IMG/VR virus record: IMGVR_UViG_3300044640_002221
Coordinates: 62,001 to 126,000 of that record
Direction: 5' to 3' (one strand)
Source: a virus
DNA: 64,000 bases
The translations under genes were made by a program, and so were the position numbers. Positions 1 to 58,247 of the stretch are shown here, piece by piece. Positions within the stretch are counted from its first letter, which is position 1. The number at the start of each line of letters is the position of its first letter. The notes below the pieces were generated by a model. The model had not been told where the DNA came from, did no database searches, and saw nothing but the letters and a program-made list of their open reading frames with translations.

Positions 1-208
1 CTGGTGGAGTGGCTAAGTTTTTAGGAATCCTGTAAACCTGAAAGTAACAGTCGGGCGCGGCAAGTAGCATCCTAGTGAGAGTTACATTCTTGTAGTCTGG
101 AAAGTCTTTAACTAATTCTTCCATTTGGGTATACAGCTTCAGCAGCTCTCTAGGTAGCATATAGAGAGTCTTAGCATACTGTACATAATCAAAGTCTTGT
201 TCTGTCAT
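1..208 (-). CDS. Hypothetical protein, 3' end outside window
   Basis: The ATG is at 208 and the frame stays open to the left edge, giving 69 codons. The product begins MTEQDFDYVQ and has an amphipathic, Leu-rich helix pattern. The first residues (MTEQ) match those of the next gene upstream, so the two may share a duplicated translation start. It lies 5 bp after that gene and is probably co-transcribed with it. No family is recognised. Confidence 0.6.
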   Translation of the reverse strand, partial: MTEQDFDYVQYAKTLYMLPRELLKLYTQMEELVKDFPDYKNVTLTRMLLAAPDCYFQVYRIPKNLATPP

Positions 209-213
209 AATGT

Positions 214-546
214 TTAAGAGTTTTGTTCTTTATTCTTGAAAAAGGTCAGCCAATCTATTACTACATCTAATAGAGCGTCTTTTGCTTCTGGAGATAGTCT
301 TGCTACCATTTCCACCAAATCTCTCTGAGCATCTTCAGCAAACAACTTGGGCTGATAGACTCTTCTAAACTCCTTTCTAATCTCTCTAAGCTTTGGCAGG
401 TGCGCTTTTAGTAAAGGGTTAACCTCCCAAGCTGCTATTATGCTTTCAATAATGTCTGAAGCTTCTTTTACTACAGGACTAAGACTAGTCTCTATAGCTT
501 GCTCAATAAGCTGGGTAGCTTCTTCTACATACTCTTGTTCTGTCAT
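214..546 (-). CDS. Hypothetical helical protein
   Basis: This 110-aa acidic protein looks almost entirely alpha-helical. A Lys/Arg-rich stretch lies near residues 50-65 (KLREIRKEFRRVY). Its start abuts the stop of the GNAT gene at 547, so translation is probably coupled. No recognisable domain; function unknown. Confidence 0.65.
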   Translation of the reverse strand: MTEQEYVEEATQLIEQAIETSLSPVVKEASDIIESIIAAWEVNPLLKAHLPKLREIRKEFRRVYQPKLFAEDAQRDLVEMVARLSPEAKDALLDVVIDWLTFFKNKEQNS

Positions 547-888
547 TTAATTCTCCGATGCAGATGGTTTGTACATCCAATTATCTCCTCCATGCGGCGG
601 AGGAACGTCTATAAACCCTAATCTTTCATACCAAGCTTTAAGGTCAGTCTTTCCTAAGCCTTGATTAAACGGAACAGACTGCAAACAAAAGGTTGCTTTA
701 GGATGAGCATCAAAGACCTCTTGCAAAAGCTGCGTGCCGTAACCTTGTCTCTGAAACTCAAGGTTGATGAACAAGTTTATTATCTGAACTTGTTTACCCT
801 CTTTGACTGTGAATGTGCCGCCTATTATCTCACCTGTGTCTGACAGAAGCTCATAATAGGCAGCTTTTAACTTGTTTATTTTTACCAT
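547..888 (-). CDS. GNAT-family N-acetyltransferase
   Basis: The 113-aa protein carries the acetyl-CoA pyrophosphate-binding signature of GNAT enzymes, FQRQGYGTQLL, near residues 45-55 (R/Q-x-x-G-x-G/A). It ends with the typical YERLGF strand-turn. It would transfer an acetyl group from acetyl-CoA to an amine; the substrate cannot be told. It is short for the family but has both the P-loop and the C-terminal strand. It lies directly downstream of the intron-encoded homing endonuclease, where the remaining polA exon was expected. Confidence 0.8.
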   Translation of the reverse strand: MVKINKLKAAYYELLSDTGEIIGGTFTVKEGKQVQIINLFINLEFQRQGYGTQLLQEVFDAHPKATFCLQSVPFNQGLGKTDLKAWYERLGFIDVPPPHGGDNWMYKPSASEN

Positions 889-914: not shown

Positions 915-1690
915 CGTGTGCTACAAGTAATTCATGTCTATTTTATAAGACATAGATGGAATGATAAATGGCTCAACAAGGGCTATAAATTTCTTTGCTT
1001 CCTTTGTTCCACAAGTTAATCTGTACCAACCTTTGTTTAGAACCTGACCAAAGTTAATAGCGTACTTTTCTTTAAAGAAATCTATGATAATTTGGTTTTC
1101 TTCTTTGGTTCTATGAGTGTTCAGATATATTCTTCTAGCGTGAATCTTTCCATTTCTTTTAGGTAAAGAAAGATTTCCATCGTCCATATACCAAATAGCT
1201 ATTCCTTCTGGCGTTAGGTAGTTTAAAATCTTTCTTTGATAGGTTTTTATCCCATTTGGGTACATCCACTTTCTTAAATAACGAAACCATCTATGCTGTT
1301 TTGAAATTTGCACACCTGGATACCCATTATTATTTATCTCCTGGATTTTTGGTTGTTTGCCCCCGAGAATTGAGTGTAGTAACTTAGCTTTGTGCTCCAG
1401 GTACTCTCTTTGCTTTGCTGAGTGTCGCAACTTCAAAGTATAGTACGTTTTAGGAACAGTACATCTTTTGTTAACTACAGGCGTTACGTACCCGTCCCCT
1501 AAGACCATTGCTATTAGCAGAGATTTTTTTAACTGTCTTTCCATCTTCTTTTACAAACCTTTTGGTTGTACTTTATGTAAATTGTAGCTTAGTCGTTACA
1601 CTTTCCTACCATCCCTGATAGGCTTAGCTAGGTATTACCCTTCCTTGCTGCAAAGGTTTGGGGCTTTCACCTAATTCACCCAGTTGTCAT
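915..1690 (-). other. Probable group I intron 3 of polA (boundaries approximate)
   Basis: On the minus strand, just after the polA motif B exon loses its frame, bases 1690-1560 contain a run like the P3/P4 region of group I introns (GGTGAATTAGGTGAAAGCC) and then AACGACTAAG, which resembles the conserved R/P7 element. The homing endonuclease follows. The 5' boundary is near 1690. I could not place the 3' splice site: no frame between 921 and 888 restores polymerase sequence. Confidence 0.55.
921..1544 (-). CDS. LAGLIDADG homing endonuclease (intron-encoded)
   Basis: The 207-aa protein has a first LAGLIDADG-like helix at the N-terminus (LLIAMVLGDGYV) and a second acidic motif, AIWYMDDGNL, near residue 115. 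This is the pattern of single-chain LAGLIDADG endonucleases of the DDG type. It lies downstream of a group I intron core (about 1560-1690) that interrupts the polA reading frame after the motif B exon. It would cut intronless polA alleles to spread the intron. Confidence 0.85.
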   Translation of the reverse strand: MERQLKKSLLIAMVLGDGYVTPVVNKRCTVPKTYYTLKLRHSAKQREYLEHKAKLLHSILGGKQPKIQEINNNGYPGVQISKQHRWFRYLRKWMYPNGIKTYQRKILNYLTPEGIAIWYMDDGNLSLPKRNGKIHARRIYLNTHRTKEENQIIIDFFKEKYAINFGQVLNKGWYRLTCGTKEAKKFIALVEPFIIPSMSYKIDMNYL

Positions 1691-2154
1691 CCACCAATCA
1701 CTTGGTGGCGGGGCTGAGAACCAACCCATCTCCATAATCCTGATACTGGAGAGATAGCATATCCTCTGGCGGCTGCGATCGCTCCGAACTCTTCTGCCCA
1801 AGCGTAATAACCTGGATAGGTAGTTCTGTGTCCTGTTAACCAAGACTGAGCTACTTCTTCTTTTACACAGAAGTTTTCAGCAGCTGTTGAAGCGGACATA
1901 AGATATATGCTACCAAAGTTGAGAGATTTTGCACTCTTCCTTGCTCCGCTTTTGTCTGCTATTGCTCTCCATTCGTGCTCTGGTTTTCCTTCAAATAAAT
2001 GAGGGGCTACACAACCTTTTGATGAGAGAGTATGTAAATCGGAGTAGGGATTTACATACTCTGTACCATCTTCTAAGTAGAGCTTAGTTTTTGCTAGATA
2101 ACTGTTGACCATTGTGGGGTCTTTCGACCATGCTGCGGCTGTGATTAGCTCTTG
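1687..2154 (-). CDS. DNA polymerase I family A, exon 3 (end of motif A, motif B)
   Basis: Reading from 2154 the frame gives QELITAAAW, the second half of polymerase motif A, then DLHTLSSK. Next comes motif B/O-helix, RKSAKSLNFGSIY, with the Arg, Lys and Gly-Tyr pattern of family A polymerases. The ATG at 2112 is internal, not a true start. The frame ends at 1687 inside the following intron. Joined to exon 2 it gives DYAG-QEL, an intact motif A. Palm motif C (HDE) is absent here and was not found elsewhere in the window. Confidence 0.85.
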   Translation of the reverse strand, partial: QELITAAAWSKDPTMVNSYLAKTKLYLEDGTEYVNPYSDLHTLSSKGCVAPHLFEGKPEHEWRAIADKSGARKSAKSLNFGSIYLMSASTAAENFCVKEEVAQSWLTGHRTTYPGYYAWAEEFGAIAAARGYAISPVSGLWRWVGSQPRHQVIGG

Positions 2155-2308
2155 CTTTTGTGATTACCGTGAGGCTCTTTATCCTCACCTCTTATAGTTT
2201 CCTATAAGCTTCGACTATCTCTTCATCTCATGTTGTATTAATACCCTAGACGGGGCTCGAACCCGCAGTTCCTTTCGTAAGCATAAGGGTTAGGAGAAAA
2301 GGTTATAA

Positions 2309-3418
2309 CTACCTGAGCCATTTTCTTATAGCGTTGTCACTTACACCAAACATTTTACCCACAGAAACATAACTTTTTGAAGAAACTAGAGCTAATAGTT
2401 CTTCTTTACTAGGTCTGTCTTTGACTTTTCTAGTATGTAATTGATGACAAGAGGGACAGCGAGCACTCTTTCTACTCAATGTGATTTTGCCGCAGTCTTT
2501 ACACTTGTTATCTTGAACTTCTTTGTTTCTGAGTTTTTCCTGTTTTAGCTTCAGTAAGTCTGCCTTTTCTTGTCTTTTAATGGTCAGTTGTTTCTGCTTT
2601 TCTTCTGTAGCCTTATTACGAAGATGTCTCTCTGCCTGCTTAACTCTTAGTGTGTCTAACTTTACTGTTTCTAGTGTTATTAGCTGCATTGCCAGACTGA
2701 ACTTTCTTTCTAGCTTGCTTGTAGAGTCTGCATATAATACTTGACAAACTTTTAAAGCTCGCAGCCCATTAACATTGACCTCGCAGTAGTTACCTCTATT
2801 AACAGGTCTACACCTATAAGCTGGGTCTATAGACTTTACATATTCTATAAACCCTTCCACCATATTTATAGACCCACATAGACCAACTGCTCTTTTCTTT
2901 TCTCCTACATAAACCCATCCATCTCCATCTATACAGCCCCGCCAAAAGTGACGCTGTAAAGAGGGTTCTATGTAAGGTGGTGATGCTATTAGAGATTTAC
3001 GAGGTACTACCCCAAGCTTTGCCAAGTCTTCTTTCATTCTTTTTGAGAATACTGATAGACAAGCAGAGTTTTTCTTCGTGTATCTAACTTTTGTGTGGGC
3101 TTCTAAATAATCTTTAAACTCTTCCAGTATAAGAAAATCATTTTTATGTACTTCTAAGGAAATATTATTTCCTTTTGTAGATACACACCCATCAGTTATT
3201 AAAAACCCAAGGAAATAGGCTTTACTTTCAGTATCAATGTTTTCAAAGAATGACTCGTTCACAGGTTTAAGCGTGCCTCTTCCGTTTTTGGCTACTAGGG
3301 CAAGATTAATATAACATAAGATGCCTGGCGTTCGTGGAGCTTTCTGCTGTTCCAGCTTATTAACTCTAGTCTGTACACCTTCCTTCCATTCCTGGAAGGC
3401 TTGGCTCGGTGTTGTCAT
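2309..3418 (-). CDS. LAGLIDADG homing endonuclease with zinc ribbon and HTH tail
   Basis: The 369-aa protein has a LAGLIDADG motif near residues 70-80 (AYFLGFLITDGCV) and a second near 155-165 (FWRGCIDGDGWV). After a charged coiled linker it has a CxxC...CxxC zinc ribbon (CKDCG, CPSCH) near 305-328. It ends in a helix-turn-helix, VGKMFGVSDNAIRKWL, common at the tail of phage homing endonucleases. It sits in intron 2 of polA and presumably drives that intron's mobility. Confidence 0.85.
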   Translation of the reverse strand: MTTPSQAFQEWKEGVQTRVNKLEQQKAPRTPGILCYINLALVAKNGRGTLKPVNESFFENIDTESKAYFLGFLITDGCVSTKGNNISLEVHKNDFLILEEFKDYLEAHTKVRYTKKNSACLSVFSKRMKEDLAKLGVVPRKSLIASPPYIEPSLQRHFWRGCIDGDGWVYVGEKKRAVGLCGSINMVEGFIEYVKSIDPAYRCRPVNRGNYCEVNVNGLRALKVCQVLYADSTSKLERKFSLAMQLITLETVKLDTLRVKQAERHLRNKATEEKQKQLTIKRQEKADLLKLKQEKLRNKEVQDNKCKDCGKITLSRKSARCPSCHQLHTRKVKDRPSKEELLALVSSKSYVSVGKMFGVSDNAIRKWLR

Positions 3419-3514
3419 GCTCTAGTAGAGTTTAGAGTTCACCGAGTTAACCAGGTTTACACTACATGATTACTCGTGTAGGAGGCCAATGGTAGATGCA
3501 ACCCTGTCTTTGCC

Positions 3515-3856
3515 TTAAAGACGGTTATGCTTTTCGGTTCTTTGTACTCTTCTTGGTACTTTATTCTCATCGAGAATGTTATATAAGACAGTAGTGCCAA
3601 AACCAAACTCTTTTAGGATGTCGCCAGCTTTTGAACCAGCTTTATATTTTGATATAACCTGCTCAACAGTGGCAGAAGGCAGCTTGACTTTACTAGCGAT
3701 AGTCCTTCTTTCATAAACTTGGTTTTTATCCAATAGAGTATAAAAATTATGACTGTTAAGCTCGTATCTCAGTTTTATTCTGTGTACAGGCTCGCCATCT
3801 TTATATGCTGCTATTATTTCTGCTACTTGTTGTGGGGTTAAATCTTTATAGCTCAT
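3515..3856 (-). CDS. Intron-encoded double HTH protein
   Basis: The 113 aa form two similar resolvase-like helix-turn-helix units: residues about 6-45 (LTPQQVAEII..YKDGEPVHRIKLRYEL) and 58-100 (SATVEQVISKYKAGSKAGDILKEFG). There is no catalytic motif. It starts 21 nt inside intron 2 of polA, upstream of the endonuclease. It may be a DNA-binding partner or a detached specificity domain of the homing nuclease; the role is inferred. Confidence 0.65.
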   Translation of the reverse strand: MSYKDLTPQQVAEIIAAYKDGEPVHRIKLRYELNSHNFYTLLDKNQVYERRTIASKVKLPSATVEQVISKYKAGSKAGDILKEFGFGTTVLYNILDENKVPRRVQRTEKHNRL

Positions 3857-3877
3857 TGCACCTACCGGATATTTTCA

Positions 3878-3943
3878 ACCTGCGTAATCACAGCTTATAT
3901 GCACTTCTCCTGGTCTACATTCAAACCCTACTCTGGGATTACC
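3878..3943 (-). CDS. DNA polymerase I, mini-exon 2 (first half of motif A)
   Basis: These 22 codons encode GNPRVGFECRPGEVHISCDYAG, given here as positions 3943-3878. The key part is CDYAG, the start of family A motif A with the metal-binding Asp. The codons are in register with exon 1 (3880 is 1674 nt, or 558 codons, from 5554), but stops lie between. They splice to exon 3 at 3878/2154. The upstream boundary near SQQIG-N is inferred. Confidence 0.7.
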
Positions 3944-4188
3944 TGGGAAGGTAATTGTTCTTGTTTCAGGTTGCCATAGAGTAATTCCCAAATTTCTTTT
4001 CCTTTCTTAGTTAGTTGCAGATACTGCCTCTTGATGAGCAGCTGCTTACTTTTTAAAACATTCAAAGCAAGCATCACCTCCTTGGTGGTTAGTGGAACAT
4101 CTGGAAATAGAATACCCTTTTGAGGGTCTTTAAAGCACTGGAGAACTAGCAACTCATGCTGGCTCAACTTTAAGCCCAACGGGAGCAA
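3928..4188 (-). CDS. Small winged-helix-like ORF inside polA
   Basis: The 86-aa ORF begins inside exon 1 in another frame and ends inside exon 2. Residues 35-70 (TKEVMLALNVLKSKQLLIKR...LTKKGKEIW) read like a MarR/PadR-type winged helix. If translated it would be a third intron-linked DNA-binding protein. I see no group I core around it, so the insertion it occupies is of unknown type. Confidence 0.45.
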   Translation of the reverse strand: MLPLGLKLSQHELLVLQCFKDPQKGILFPDVPLTTKEVMLALNVLKSKQLLIKRQYLQLTKKGKEIWELLYGNLKQEQLPSQVIPE

Positions 4189-5554
4189 ACCAGGCTTTAG
4201 ATAGTGTAAGATTGCAATGCGTTTTATTCCCTATTTGTTGGCTGTTAGGTGCTGAAGAACTGGCTCTACTTGTAGCGGCTCCAAGTTGATCATAGCGAGG
4301 ATGAACGTTACCAGTCACAGGATTAATAAACTTTCTCAAGTCCATACCTTCCTGCTTCAATAACTTCTTAAACTCAAGAATAGCTTTCACTACAGGGCTG
4401 AGAGCTATCAAGTCTGACTGTTCCATGATAGTTAGTTCCTCAAAGAGAGATTCCTCATCATCACTAATAAAGATATCATCTCCACCAGCCTCACCATCGC
4501 CCCCGCTGTCTGTCTTTTTAGAAGCATGAAGTAAGTCTACAATGTCTAGCATTCTTTTGAGAGTTTTACCTTGTACATCAGTTAGCTTATTCATGTTGAT
4601 AGCTTTCTGAAGTACATCTAGTAAGCCTGTTGAGGAGCGAAGAACCTTGAGGGCTTTCTGCGAAGGAACTTCTTTACCAGACCAATCACGTTGGGGAGTG
4701 TCAAGCTCTAGTTCTCTCGAAAGATAAACTCCAGCTTCGTCTAGTGCTTCACAAACCCCTTCTTGATAAAGTCGCATGGTTTCTTCACTGACTGGCATAC
4801 CGCCATATTCCATCTCAGCTACTATGACAGTGAAGTTTAATTCTCGTTTAAGAACTTTCTCCATTCCAAAGCCATAAACACCTGAGCTGTTACCTGTCTG
4901 TAAGATAGGGCTATCTGGTAGTGCGGCTATAATAACTTGCTCCATGATGTCATGTATCTGAAATAGATATTTAACATCTGTAGCTGCGTATAGCACCTTC
5001 TCATACCACCATTCATTATCTAGAGTTCTGGCTGATATTGCAGTTCCCCAGGTAGAAGCACGCAGGTCTTTCTTACCGGTGATGTGAACACTCAAATACT
5101 CTCGGCACAAGTCAGCGTAACTATGTCCATGACCTTTACCTACCTTTGAGCCTGTGGCATTGGATATTAACTTACCCATTACCATGATGTCTCGCACGCG
5201 CTCTGGCATATAGTCCAAGGTTGATTTCATGAACTGCATATCAAACTTGTAGTTAATACCTAGCTGATAGTCTTGTACACTTTCTAAAGTGTCTATCAGT
5301 TCTTGAGGGTTGTAACCAGCAACTTCTAGGTGAAGTAAATCAAAGACGTAGGGGATACCTTTAGGCTTCTGGGCTATTAGCAGAGAGATTCTACCTGTGT
5401 GAGGGTCAAGAGCAGAGCCACCTTTGGTTAACCACTCTGGTCTTACACAGGTTTCTGTATCTACTGCCAGCCGCTTTGCTCCATAAAGGTCTCTACAAGC
5501 TAGAGGATAGTCTTGCAGGTTGGTTATGTAGGCAAAAGGTTTAGTTTGTTTCAC
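4154..5554 (-). CDS. DNA polymerase I family A, exon 1 (3'-5' exonuclease and thumb/palm start)
   Basis: The 466-aa exon carries a proofreading exonuclease: DTE at residues 32-34 (Exo I), an NYKFD motif near 100 (Exo II), and YAATDVKYLFQIHD near 190 (Exo III). The polymerase part follows, reaching GAATSRASSSAPNSQQIG, the conserved segment before motif A. After it the frame runs KAWFAPVGLKV and stops at 4154. This residue run also resembles native polymerase, so the exact exon end (about 4230 or 4165) is unclear. The start overlaps the next gene upstream by 14 nt. Confidence 0.88.
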   Translation of the reverse strand: MKQTKPFAYITNLQDYPLACRDLYGAKRLAVDTETCVRPEWLTKGGSALDPHTGRISLLIAQKPKGIPYVFDLLHLEVAGYNPQELIDTLESVQDYQLGINYKFDMQFMKSTLDYMPERVRDIMVMGKLISNATGSKVGKGHGHSYADLCREYLSVHITGKKDLRASTWGTAISARTLDNEWWYEKVLYAATDVKYLFQIHDIMEQVIIAALPDSPILQTGNSSGVYGFGMEKVLKRELNFTVIVAEMEYGGMPVSEETMRLYQEGVCEALDEAGVYLSRELELDTPQRDWSGKEVPSQKALKVLRSSTGLLDVLQKAINMNKLTDVQGKTLKRMLDIVDLLHASKKTDSGGDGEAGGDDIFISDDEESLFEELTIMEQSDLIALSPVVKAILEFKKLLKQEGMDLRKFINPVTGNVHPRYDQLGAATSRASSSAPNSQQIGNKTHCNLTLSKAWFAPVGLKVEPA

Positions 5555-40443: not shown

Positions 40444-40517
40444 TGCCCTCTGGTGAACTCGAATCACCAACCGATTCCTTAGAAGGGAATTGCTCTGTCC
40501 AATTGAGCTAAGAGAGC
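40444..40517 (-). tRNA. tRNA-Arg (anticodon TCT)
   Basis: The cloverleaf is complete: acceptor GCTCTCT/AGAGGGC, D-stem GCTC/GAGC, anticodon stem ATTCC/GGAAT with loop CTTCTAA, and T-stem GGTGA/TCACC with TTCGAGT. CCA is not encoded. It reads AGA codons, which are frequent in this AT-rich genome. Confidence 0.92.
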
Positions 40518-40521
40518 TTGA

Positions 40522-40592
40522 AGCTGGTAATAGGATTTGAACCTATGTCTTTCCTTTACAAGAGGATTGCACTGCCATTATGCTACACCAGC
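40522..40592 (-). tRNA. tRNA-Thr (anticodon TGT)
   Basis: Acceptor GCTGGTG/TACCAGC, D-stem GCAT/GTGC, anticodon loop CTTGTAA and T-arm ATAGG-TTCAAAT-CCTAT are present. The top pair of the anticodon stem is A-A, a mild irregularity. It reads ACA. Confidence 0.87.
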
Positions 40593-40595
40593 AAA

Positions 40596-40669
40596 GGTAG
40601 CATGAAGAGACTTGAACTCTCAACCTGCTGCGCCACAAGCAGCCGCTCCACCTTTGAGCTACATACTAC
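40596..40669 (-). tRNA. tRNA-His (anticodon GTG)
   Basis: Acceptor GTAGTAT/ATGCTAC, D-stem GCTC/GAGC, anticodon stem GCTGC/GCAGC with loop TTGTGGC, and T-arm GAGAG-TTCAAGT-CTCTT are present. It is the first tRNA of the block. A T-rich tract lies upstream on the plus strand. Confidence 0.9.
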
Positions 40670-57575: not shown

Positions 57576-58247
57576 ATGACAGACCAGAGCGCTTACGTCA
57601 TCGAAGAGTTAGAATTTATAGATGAGCAAATGCCGTCTGTATACCTACTATCTTATCACACTGCCAGTATGAATGAACTCTCTATAGCTAAAGAAGCTTA
57701 TGACACCTCTCAGCAATACCGCTTTAAGAGTCTCACTCACTATAAGAACTCTGGCGAGTTTCTGATAAAGATAAGAGAAGCTCTGCGGGGTGCAACAAGA
57801 GAAAAGCCTATTGTCTCTGATATAGGAACATTTAACTCCTTTGAGCACTATATGCAGACCTTCTTTGGTAAGGAGACTACAACAGGCTTAAAAAGAGCTC
57901 AAGCTAGAAACTACATGAGGCTGGCAGAAAACTGGGATGTCGTAGAAGACTTAAAGCTAAACGAAAGCGAAGCTTGTTACAGGTTAGTAGCAACCTTAAA
58001 GATTATCTCTTGGGGTCTCAAGAAGAGAGAGGCTGGCTATAACCTTAAAGAGTTAGACCACCACCTCTACTGGGATGAGAGAGACGAACTAGCCGCTCAA
58101 CAGGAACGGACTGGTGAACTATCAAAGCCTCAACTAAAAGCTCTTGTTAAAGAACTAAATAAGAAGGTAGAAGACTTAACACAAGAGCTATTGGTCTACA
58201 AGCGACGGTTTAGTGTTGACATTCTAGAAGAGAGCTTCGCCCGGTAA
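57576..58247 (+). CDS. DUF3102-like DNA-binding protein
   Basis: The 223-aa protein has GEFLIKIREAL and FNSFEHYMQTFFG near 65-97, RAQARNYMRLAENWDVVEDL near 107-126, and a C-terminal coiled coil (ALVKELNKKVEDLTQELLVY). This is the DUF3102-like pattern also seen at 13906-15258. It lies on the plus strand with its own promoter and terminator, among minus-strand cassettes. Confidence 0.75.
   Translation: MTDQSAYVIEELEFIDEQMPSVYLLSYHTASMNELSIAKEAYDTSQQYRFKSLTHYKNSGEFLIKIREALRGATREKPIVSDIGTFNSFEHYMQTFFGKETTTGLKRAQARNYMRLAENWDVVEDLKLNESEACYRLVATLKIISWGLKKREAGYNLKELDHHLYWDERDELAAQQERTGELSKPQLKALVKELNKKVEDLTQELLVYKRRFSVDILEESFAR

What the first reader, a model, noticed from the sequence alone, without database searches (positions are those of the whole stretch)
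1687..5554. polA split by up to three insertions; catalytic motif C not in the window
Exon 1 (exonuclease and palm start), a 22-codon mini-exon (CDYAG) and exon 3 (QEL... motif B) join at a precise group I-like site (3878/2154). A third insertion follows motif B with its own LAGLIDADG gene. After it no frame encodes motif C (HDE) within the window. Either the last exon lies left of position 1, making a very long intron that holds GNAT and other genes, or the C-terminus is split or trans-spliced, or the gene is dead.
Basis: partly seen in the sequence, partly recalled or inferred. Interest (0 to 1): 0.8.

Follow-up and report, generated by a model that had tools for sequence, protein, structure and literature searches.

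The report
Phage DNA polymerase with five introns
The catalytic half of a cyanophage-type DNA polymerase is a 318-codon gene cut into five coding pieces by five predicted self-splicing RNA introns that carry other phage genes and a tRNA and make up about 90% of the gene, so its missing active-site piece is not lost but lies over 5 kb beyond the window edge, split between the two catalytic acids.

Summary
The window lies in a 136.9 kb phage record, and the missing motif C is in the same record, on the same strand, left of position 1. (1) "Exon 1" and the "mini-exon" are not split by an intron. They are two genes: an exonuclease half and a polymerase half, divided inside palm motif A. The same split occurs in Ma-LMM01 and in intronless relatives. 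(2) The polymerase half (about 318 aa) is interrupted by five group I introns: after DYAG (motif A), after RWV, two abutting introns after IQG, and between HD and E of motif C. Joining the exons gives one open frame with a PF00476 score of 91 bits; the two fragments alone give 36 and 31. It aligns without gaps at every junction with an intronless orthologue at 53% identity, and dN/dS against a relative is about 0.1. (3) Core helices P3-P9 pair in the introns, many with compensatory changes. Intron 2 (4.4 kb) holds a LAGLIDADG gene and about ten other ORFs inside a conserved P8 stem; intron 5 holds a tRNA. The gene is neither dead nor trans-spliced on this evidence; splicing itself was not observed. 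Kind: known. Variant: extreme, with tandem introns and cargo.

The parts
4154..5554 (-). Exonuclease + thumb half of the split family A DNA polymerase (466 aa), a separate gene ending ...NSQQIGNKTH..FAPVGLKVEPA*
   Evidence: PF01612 3.9e-15 and PF00476 35.5 bits; 73% identical to L006, 54% to L021, 50% to L105, 29% to Ma-LMM01 gp180; same end point in all
3928..4188 (-). Small 86-aa ORF between the two polymerase halves, conserved at this place (function unknown)
   Evidence: 56% to L006, 52% to L105, 41% to L021; not part of an intron
3878..3991 (-). Polymerase-half gene, exon A (38 codons from TTG; ends in motif A CDYAG, GGT^)
   Evidence: start aligns with the ATG start in L006
2155..3877 (-). 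Group I intron 1 (1,723 nt)
   Evidence: RF00028 43.7 bits (5' core) and 28.4 bits (3' core) here, 81.8 bits in the L006 orthologue; P1 AGGU/GCCU here against GGGU/GCCC in L006, P4 with 2 double changes; ends U^...G^
3515..3856 (-). 113-aa HTH ORF in the P1 loop of intron 1
   Evidence: phrog_1303 DNA binding protein 2.3e-17; homologous ORF inside the L006 intron, and as a free-standing gene beside the polymerase in intronless L105
2309..3418 (-). 369-aa LAGLIDADG homing endonuclease ORF of intron 1
   Evidence: PF14528 2.4e-7
1724..2154 (-). Polymerase exon B (QELITAAAW...SGLWRWV), contains motif B RKSAKSLNFGSIY
   Evidence: ungapped junctions against intronless L105
1..1723 (-). Group I intron 2, the part inside the window (whole intron G000:63723-59275, 4,449 nt; window 1723 to -2725)
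   Evidence: RF00028 26.4 bits at 1677-1587; P1 GGGUUG/CAGCCC, P3, P4, P6a, P7 pair in both phages; 19-bp P8 stem at 905-887 with its partner at G000:59369-59351, 8 double changes
921..1544 (-). 207-aa LAGLIDADG_2 homing endonuclease ORF in intron 2, between P7 and P3'
   Evidence: PF03161 1.2e-29
547..888 (-). GNAT acetyltransferase, cargo inside the P8 loop of intron 2
   Evidence: PF13508 6.2e-9; absent from the five relatives searched
214..546 (-). 110-aa ORF, cargo in intron 2
1..208 (-). Start of a 169-aa ORF, cargo in intron 2. Beyond the window edge (G000, minus strand): rest of intron 2; exon C 59274-59205; intron 3 59204-58321; intron 4 58320-56906; exon D 56905-56816 (ends ..AVHD); intron 5 56815-56124 with a tRNA; exon E 56123-55872 (ELNARAPG..IGPIWLH*)

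Best explanation
A split family A DNA polymerase of a large cyanophage-type virus. The 3'-5' exonuclease/thumb half and the fingers/palm half are separate proteins, divided inside motif A. The gene for the palm half (about 318 codons) is interrupted at four sites by five group I introns, which occupy 9.16 kb of the 10.1 kb gene. Each intron is predicted to pair its internal guide with the 5' exon (U-G at the cut), remove itself by the usual two-step reaction and end in G, so that the five exons A-E join into one frame with motif A DYAG, motif B R..AK..NFG.IY and motif C HDE. Two introns (3 and 4) abut at one site with no exon between them and share the same 5' target GGGU. Intron 3 may leave first, or intron 4 may remove both with intron 3 as a P1 loop; either route gives the same mRNA. 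Homing endonucleases explain how the introns spread. Introns 2, 4 and 5 also house ordinary phage genes and a tRNA in peripheral loops. Shown: frame, motifs, homology, junction conservation, core helices with compensatory changes. Inferred: splicing, mobility, assembly of the two halves.
For: Spliced frame: 318 aa without a stop, PF00476 8.8e-26, 91.2 bits over profile positions 142-344, against 35.7 and 31 bits for the two fragments seen unspliced; matches Taq and Klenow polymerases through HDE. Ungapped at all four sites with intronless L105 (53% identity, DYSGQEA / RWVDEENSK / AIQGPCAQM / VHDEINI); LMM01 gp178 and L020 also uninterrupted. Relative L006 has four of the five introns at the same sites, in a separate contig. 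dN 0.17, dS 1.65 for the pol half. Group I: Rfam hits. Intron 5 in four phages: P3, P7, P8, P9, P9.1 all paired, with 2, 2, 4, 2 and 7 double changes. Intron 2 P8 19/19 in both phages with 8 double changes across about 3.5 kb. Intron 4 P7 is GGGCA/UGCCC; its 3' half in L006 was located by its P8 complement, and the predicted UGCCC was there.
Against: No RNA data. In this phage only intron 3 passes the Rfam gathering score; introns 1, 2, 4 and 5 are supported by sub-threshold or half hits plus hand-identified helices and orthologues. The intron 3/4 boundary rests on spacing (18 nt from the conserved GAUAAAGAGCC element) and on comparison with one relative. The TTG start is inferred. Compensatory counts for introns 1, 2 and 4 come from only two sequences, and helices were chosen by hand.
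Confidence: 0.92

Rival explanations
1. The gene is a decaying pseudogene broken by mobile elements; replication uses a host polymerase or a polymerase missing from this record.
For: Very low exon fraction and many endonuclease genes; no splicing data; record possibly incomplete.
Against: All exons open and in frame when joined; catalytic residues kept; dN/dS about 0.1; same architecture in an independent contig; no PF00136 or PF07733 polymerase in either phage.
Confidence: 0.03
2. The pieces are translated separately and assemble as a multi-subunit polymerase without splicing.
For: The exonuclease and palm halves really are separate proteins in this clade.
Against: Exons C (70 nt) and D (90 nt) are too short to stand as separate subunits, and motif C would be split between two peptides; the insertions carry group I cores with guides matching the exon ends.
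Confidence: 0.02
3. One reading: an additional intron separates exon 1 from the CDYAG mini-exon.
For: Phage Mic1 authors call a 298-bp gap at this place an intron (PMC7156551); known phage polymerase introns are at sites 674 and 676 in E. coli numbering (PMC3428280), which by my own knowledge of the E. coli sequence is close to this point.
Against: No Rfam match there; the exo half ends with conserved codons past the split; intronless L105 and L020 keep the two halves as separate genes, in L020 1.75 kb apart with opposite-strand genes between; L006's pol half has its own ATG after an in-frame stop.
Confidence: 0.03
4. Assembly artefact joining unrelated fragments.
For: Metagenome-derived contig.
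Against: The same order of exons, introns 1, 2, 4 and 5 and cargo in L006 from another contig.
Confidence: 0.01

Closest known systems
Single group I introns in phage DNA polymerase genes (SPO1, SP82, Bastille, Pf-WMP3, phi-I/W31, phiL7)
   Same: Group I introns in family A polymerase genes; intron 5 lies at motif C, which by E. coli numbering (own knowledge: D882, E883) is next to site 881 used in phi-I and W31 (PMC3428280); encoded homing endonucleases
   Different: Those have one intron each, with HNH enzymes; here there are five introns at four sites, LAGLIDADG enzymes, tandem introns and non-endonuclease cargo
Ma-LMM01 gp180/gp178 and Mic1 ORF86/ORF85 split polymerase
   Same: Exonuclease and polymerase halves encoded by two ORFs divided in motif A
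   Different: The LMM01 polymerase half is uninterrupted; here it carries five introns
Multi-intron genes in Jug and crAss-like phages
   Same: Essential genes, including polymerase and terL, broken by group I introns or endonuclease genes; splicing confirmed by reads for 37 of 76 predicted introns in Jug phages (PMC12363816)
   Different: No tandem introns or kilobase cargo inside an intron stem were described in the passages read
Tandem ('side-by-side') group I introns of fungal mitochondria (E. resinifera mS917a/b, H. aurantius cox3-i2)
   Same: Two group I introns next to each other with no exon between (PMC6279837)
   Different: Fungal organelle, with paralogous intron ORFs in E. resinifera; here in a phage, one intron with an endonuclease and the other with phage cargo

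Membership tests
Group I intron | 5' exon ends in U paired as U-G with the internal guide (P1) | tested here: met
   All five: AGGU/GCCU, GGGU..CAGCCC, GGGU/GCCC (introns 3 and 4, same exon), CACGAU/GUCGUG (intron 3 guide read from the sequence)
Group I intron | Intron ends in G | tested here: met
   G at all five 3' ends here and all four in L006
Group I intron | P3/P7/P8 core with a G:C guanosine-binding pair in P7 | tested here: met
   GACUA/UAGUC (introns 1, 2), GGGCA/UGCCC (4), GGUCA or GAUCA/UGAUC (5), with covariation in intron 5; intron 3 by Rfam alignment
Group I intron | Rfam RF00028 at or above gathering score (50 bits) | tested here: inconclusive
   Intron 3: 63.7 bits; intron 1: 81.8 in L006 but 43.7 + 28.4 here (interrupted by an ORF); intron 2: 26.4 half hit here, 37 + 31 in L006; intron 4: 25.5 in L006; intron 5: 13.5 here, 20.9 in L006, 28.1-28.6 in L021 and L022
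Group I intron | Self-splicing activity | not testable with these tools
   Needs in vitro transcription
Family A DNA polymerase | Motifs A, B and C with catalytic Asp and Asp-Glu | tested here: met
   CDYAG, RKSAKSLNFGSIY, VHDE after joining; PF00476 8.8e-26
LMM01-type split polymerase | Separate exonuclease and polymerase genes divided in motif A | tested here: met
Tandem group I introns | Two complete introns with zero-length exon | tested here: met
   GGGT^[884 nt]^AAATAAC here against GGT^AAATTAC in L006; no extra residue at AIQG|E against L105
Trans-spliced split intron | Intron halves on separate transcripts | tested here: not met
   All halves in order on one strand in cis; transcripts themselves not seen
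Intein | In-frame insertion with splicing motifs | tested here: not met
   The insertions contain stop codons in the exon frame and are not translated through; in-frame intein-like insertions are present only in L006

The most novel reading that the evidence does not exclude
In this phage lineage the group I introns of the polymerase act as gene islands: ordinary phage genes and a tRNA live in P1, P6 and P8 loops under selection. Splicing then sets how much polymerase and how much cargo is made from one transcript, and the tandem pair arose because a second intron reverse-spliced next to a guide-matching 5' site already occupied.
Probability: 0.3. Interest if true: 0.78.

Novelty: new variant of a known kind. 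Interest (0 to 1): 0.66.

Why it matters
It shows that a phage replication gene can be about 90% intron, with exons as short as 70 nt, which gene finders report as a polymerase without a catalytic centre. The clade offers intronless, one-, two-, four- and five-intron versions of one gene, so intron gain, tandem insertion and capture of cargo genes can be ordered and tested. The conserved cargo gene of intron 4 (dN/dS about 0.12) and the tRNA in intron 5 raise the question whether such introns are kept for what they carry.

Tried and rejected
Regex search for an intact HDE motif in all frames found none that fits, because an intron splits HD^E. Search for a second polymerase (PF00136, PF07733) found none. 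An intron between exo half and mini-exon was rejected (see rivals). Trans-splicing was considered while the 3' half of intron 4 was missing, then dropped when its P8 complement was found in cis. A close-relative search with exon E alone gave only weak hits; the profile searches gave the useful relatives. My first intron-5 alignment had mistyped exon ends for two rows and was replaced.

Full report
Setting. The window is bases 62001-126000 of a 136,923-base virus record, G000. Coordinates below are genome coordinates (window = genome minus 62000); everything is on the minus strand.

Two genes, not one. The exonuclease ORF (67554-66154) ends shortly after the NSQQIGN peptide. Its relatives end at the same place: Ma-LMM01 gp180 with gp178 downstream, L105, L021, and L020, where the polymerase half starts 1.75 kb later beyond genes on the other strand. 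A small conserved ORF overlaps or follows the end of the first half (52-56% identity to L105 and L006). The polymerase half has its own start: ATG in L006 and L105, and a TTG at 65991 here with an AGGA motif about eight bases upstream (sequence). The same split was described in phage Mic1, where the gap was called an intron (PMC7156551). I find no intron signature in it here.

Five exons. Joining 65991-65878, 64154-63724, 59274-59205, 56905-56816 and 56123-55872 gives 318 residues without a stop. The product scores 91.2 bits (8.8e-26) for DNA_pol_A, while the genome search saw only two fragments of 35.7 and 31 bits, the first of them in the exonuclease half. PDB comparison aligns it with Taq and Klenow polymerases through motif C. 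An intronless orthologue, L105 (53% identity), runs through all four sites without a gap: DYSGQEA, RWVDEENSK, AIQGPCAQM, VHDEINI. L105's record title names an Actinomycetales MAG, but its gene content matches this phage group (RecA-like gene, polymerase halves), so the binning is doubtful. Between this phage and L006 the joined frame has dN 0.17 and dS 1.65: the gene is under strong constraint.

Five introns. Intron 1 (65877-64155, 1,723 nt), intron 2 (63723-59275, 4,449 nt), intron 3 (59204-58321, 884 nt), intron 4 (58320-56906, 1,415 nt), intron 5 (56815-56124, 692 nt): 9,163 nt in a 10.1 kb gene. Each 5' exon ends in U facing G of the guide, and each intron ends in G. Rfam finds RF00028 above gathering for intron 3 here (63.7 bits) and for intron 1 in L006 (81.8 bits). 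The others are cut by inserted genes and give partial hits.

Intron 5 is the best tested by covariation because four phages share it at HD^E. P3, P7, P8, P9 and P9.1 are fully paired in all four, with 2, 2, 4, 2 and 7 pairs changed on both sides. For intron 2 the P8 stem is 19/19 paired here and in L006 with eight double changes, although about 3.5 kb here and 1.5 kb there separate the two strands. Intron 4 has an unusual P7, GGGCA. I therefore expected UGCCC on the other strand; the 3' half in L006 was then found through the complement of its P8 strand, with UGCCC in place, and the same holds here. With its 3' end located, the exons with VHD and ELNARAPG followed.

Tandem introns. In L006 the exon ends AAGGT and intron 4 begins AAATTACATTTGCCCC. 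Here the exon ends AGGGT, then comes the whole of intron 3 with its own LAGLIDADG gene, then AAATAACAATTGCCCC. The 3' boundary of intron 3 follows from the 18-base spacing after the GAUAAAGAGCC element, which also holds for introns 1, 2 and 4 here. Both guides read GCCC and face the same GGGU. Intron 3 can therefore leave first, or intron 4 can remove both with intron 3 as an oversized P1 loop (intron 1 likewise holds an HTH ORF in its P1 loop). The product is the same. Tandem group I introns are known in fungal mitochondria (PMC6279837); my literature searches found none in phages, but they covered open-access text only.

Cargo. Intron 2 holds a LAGLIDADG gene between P7 and P3', and in its P8 loop a GNAT gene and about ten further ORFs, none with a clear family. 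Two small ORFs are shared with L006; the GNAT is not found in the five relatives searched. Intron 4 has no endonuclease but two phage ORFs, both in L006. The 202-aa one is 71% identical there with dN/dS about 0.12 and has paralogues elsewhere in the genomes. Intron 5 holds a tRNA-Met(CAU) in its P6 region here and in L006. In L021 and L022 that region holds endonuclease-like ORFs and no tRNA.

Hotspot. Across the clade, intron sites are motif A (DYAG^), motif B (NFG^ in L022 and L024), RWV^D, IQG^ and motif C (HD^E). L006 also carries two intein-like in-frame insertions, one before NSQQIG and one at motif B. Published phage polymerase introns sit at sites 674, 676 and 881 in E. coli numbering (PMC3428280); 881 is at motif C (own knowledge of the E. 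coli sequence).

Verdict. A real, functional-looking split polymerase with an exceptional intron load; the kind is known, the degree and the tandem and cargo arrangement are not described in what I could read. Splicing is inferred, not seen.

Noticed in passing
L006 11,290-12,290 and 13,545-14,850 (IMGVR_UViG_3300046777_002658): Two in-frame intein-like insertions: one in the exonuclease half before NSQQIG, one in motif B (AK^SLNFG) with an endonuclease-like domain, in the same polymerase that carries four introns.
   Followed up: partly
G000:119657-120181 (window 57657-58181, + strand): Paralogue (37% identity) of the 202-aa cargo ORF of intron 4; further copies in L006's contig and L020's contig.
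   Followed up: partly
L010:4719-4908 + (G000:4719-4908): Sub-threshold HEARO RNA match (43.9 bits, gathering 83), an HNH endonuclease-associated RNA; neighbouring ORFs not examined.
   Followed up: no
window 40444-40668 -: Cluster of three tRNA genes.
   Followed up: no
L022:8306-9056 and L024:8369-8613: Group I introns inside motif B (NFG^) of relatives, a site not occupied in the window phage; the one in L022 contains an ORF that looks HNH-like by eye.
   Followed up: partly
L021:8804-9394 -: LAGLIDADG-like ORF (by eye) on the antisense strand inside the motif C intron.
   Followed up: no
L105 3741-4202: The HTH ORF that sits in the P1 loop of intron 1 here is a free-standing gene directly before the intronless polymerase half in L105, suggesting that the intron took up a neighbour gene or the reverse.
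   Followed up: partly
L105 (NBNH01000163.1): Contig in an Actinomycetales MAG carries genes of this phage group; probably a mis-binned phage contig.
   Followed up: no
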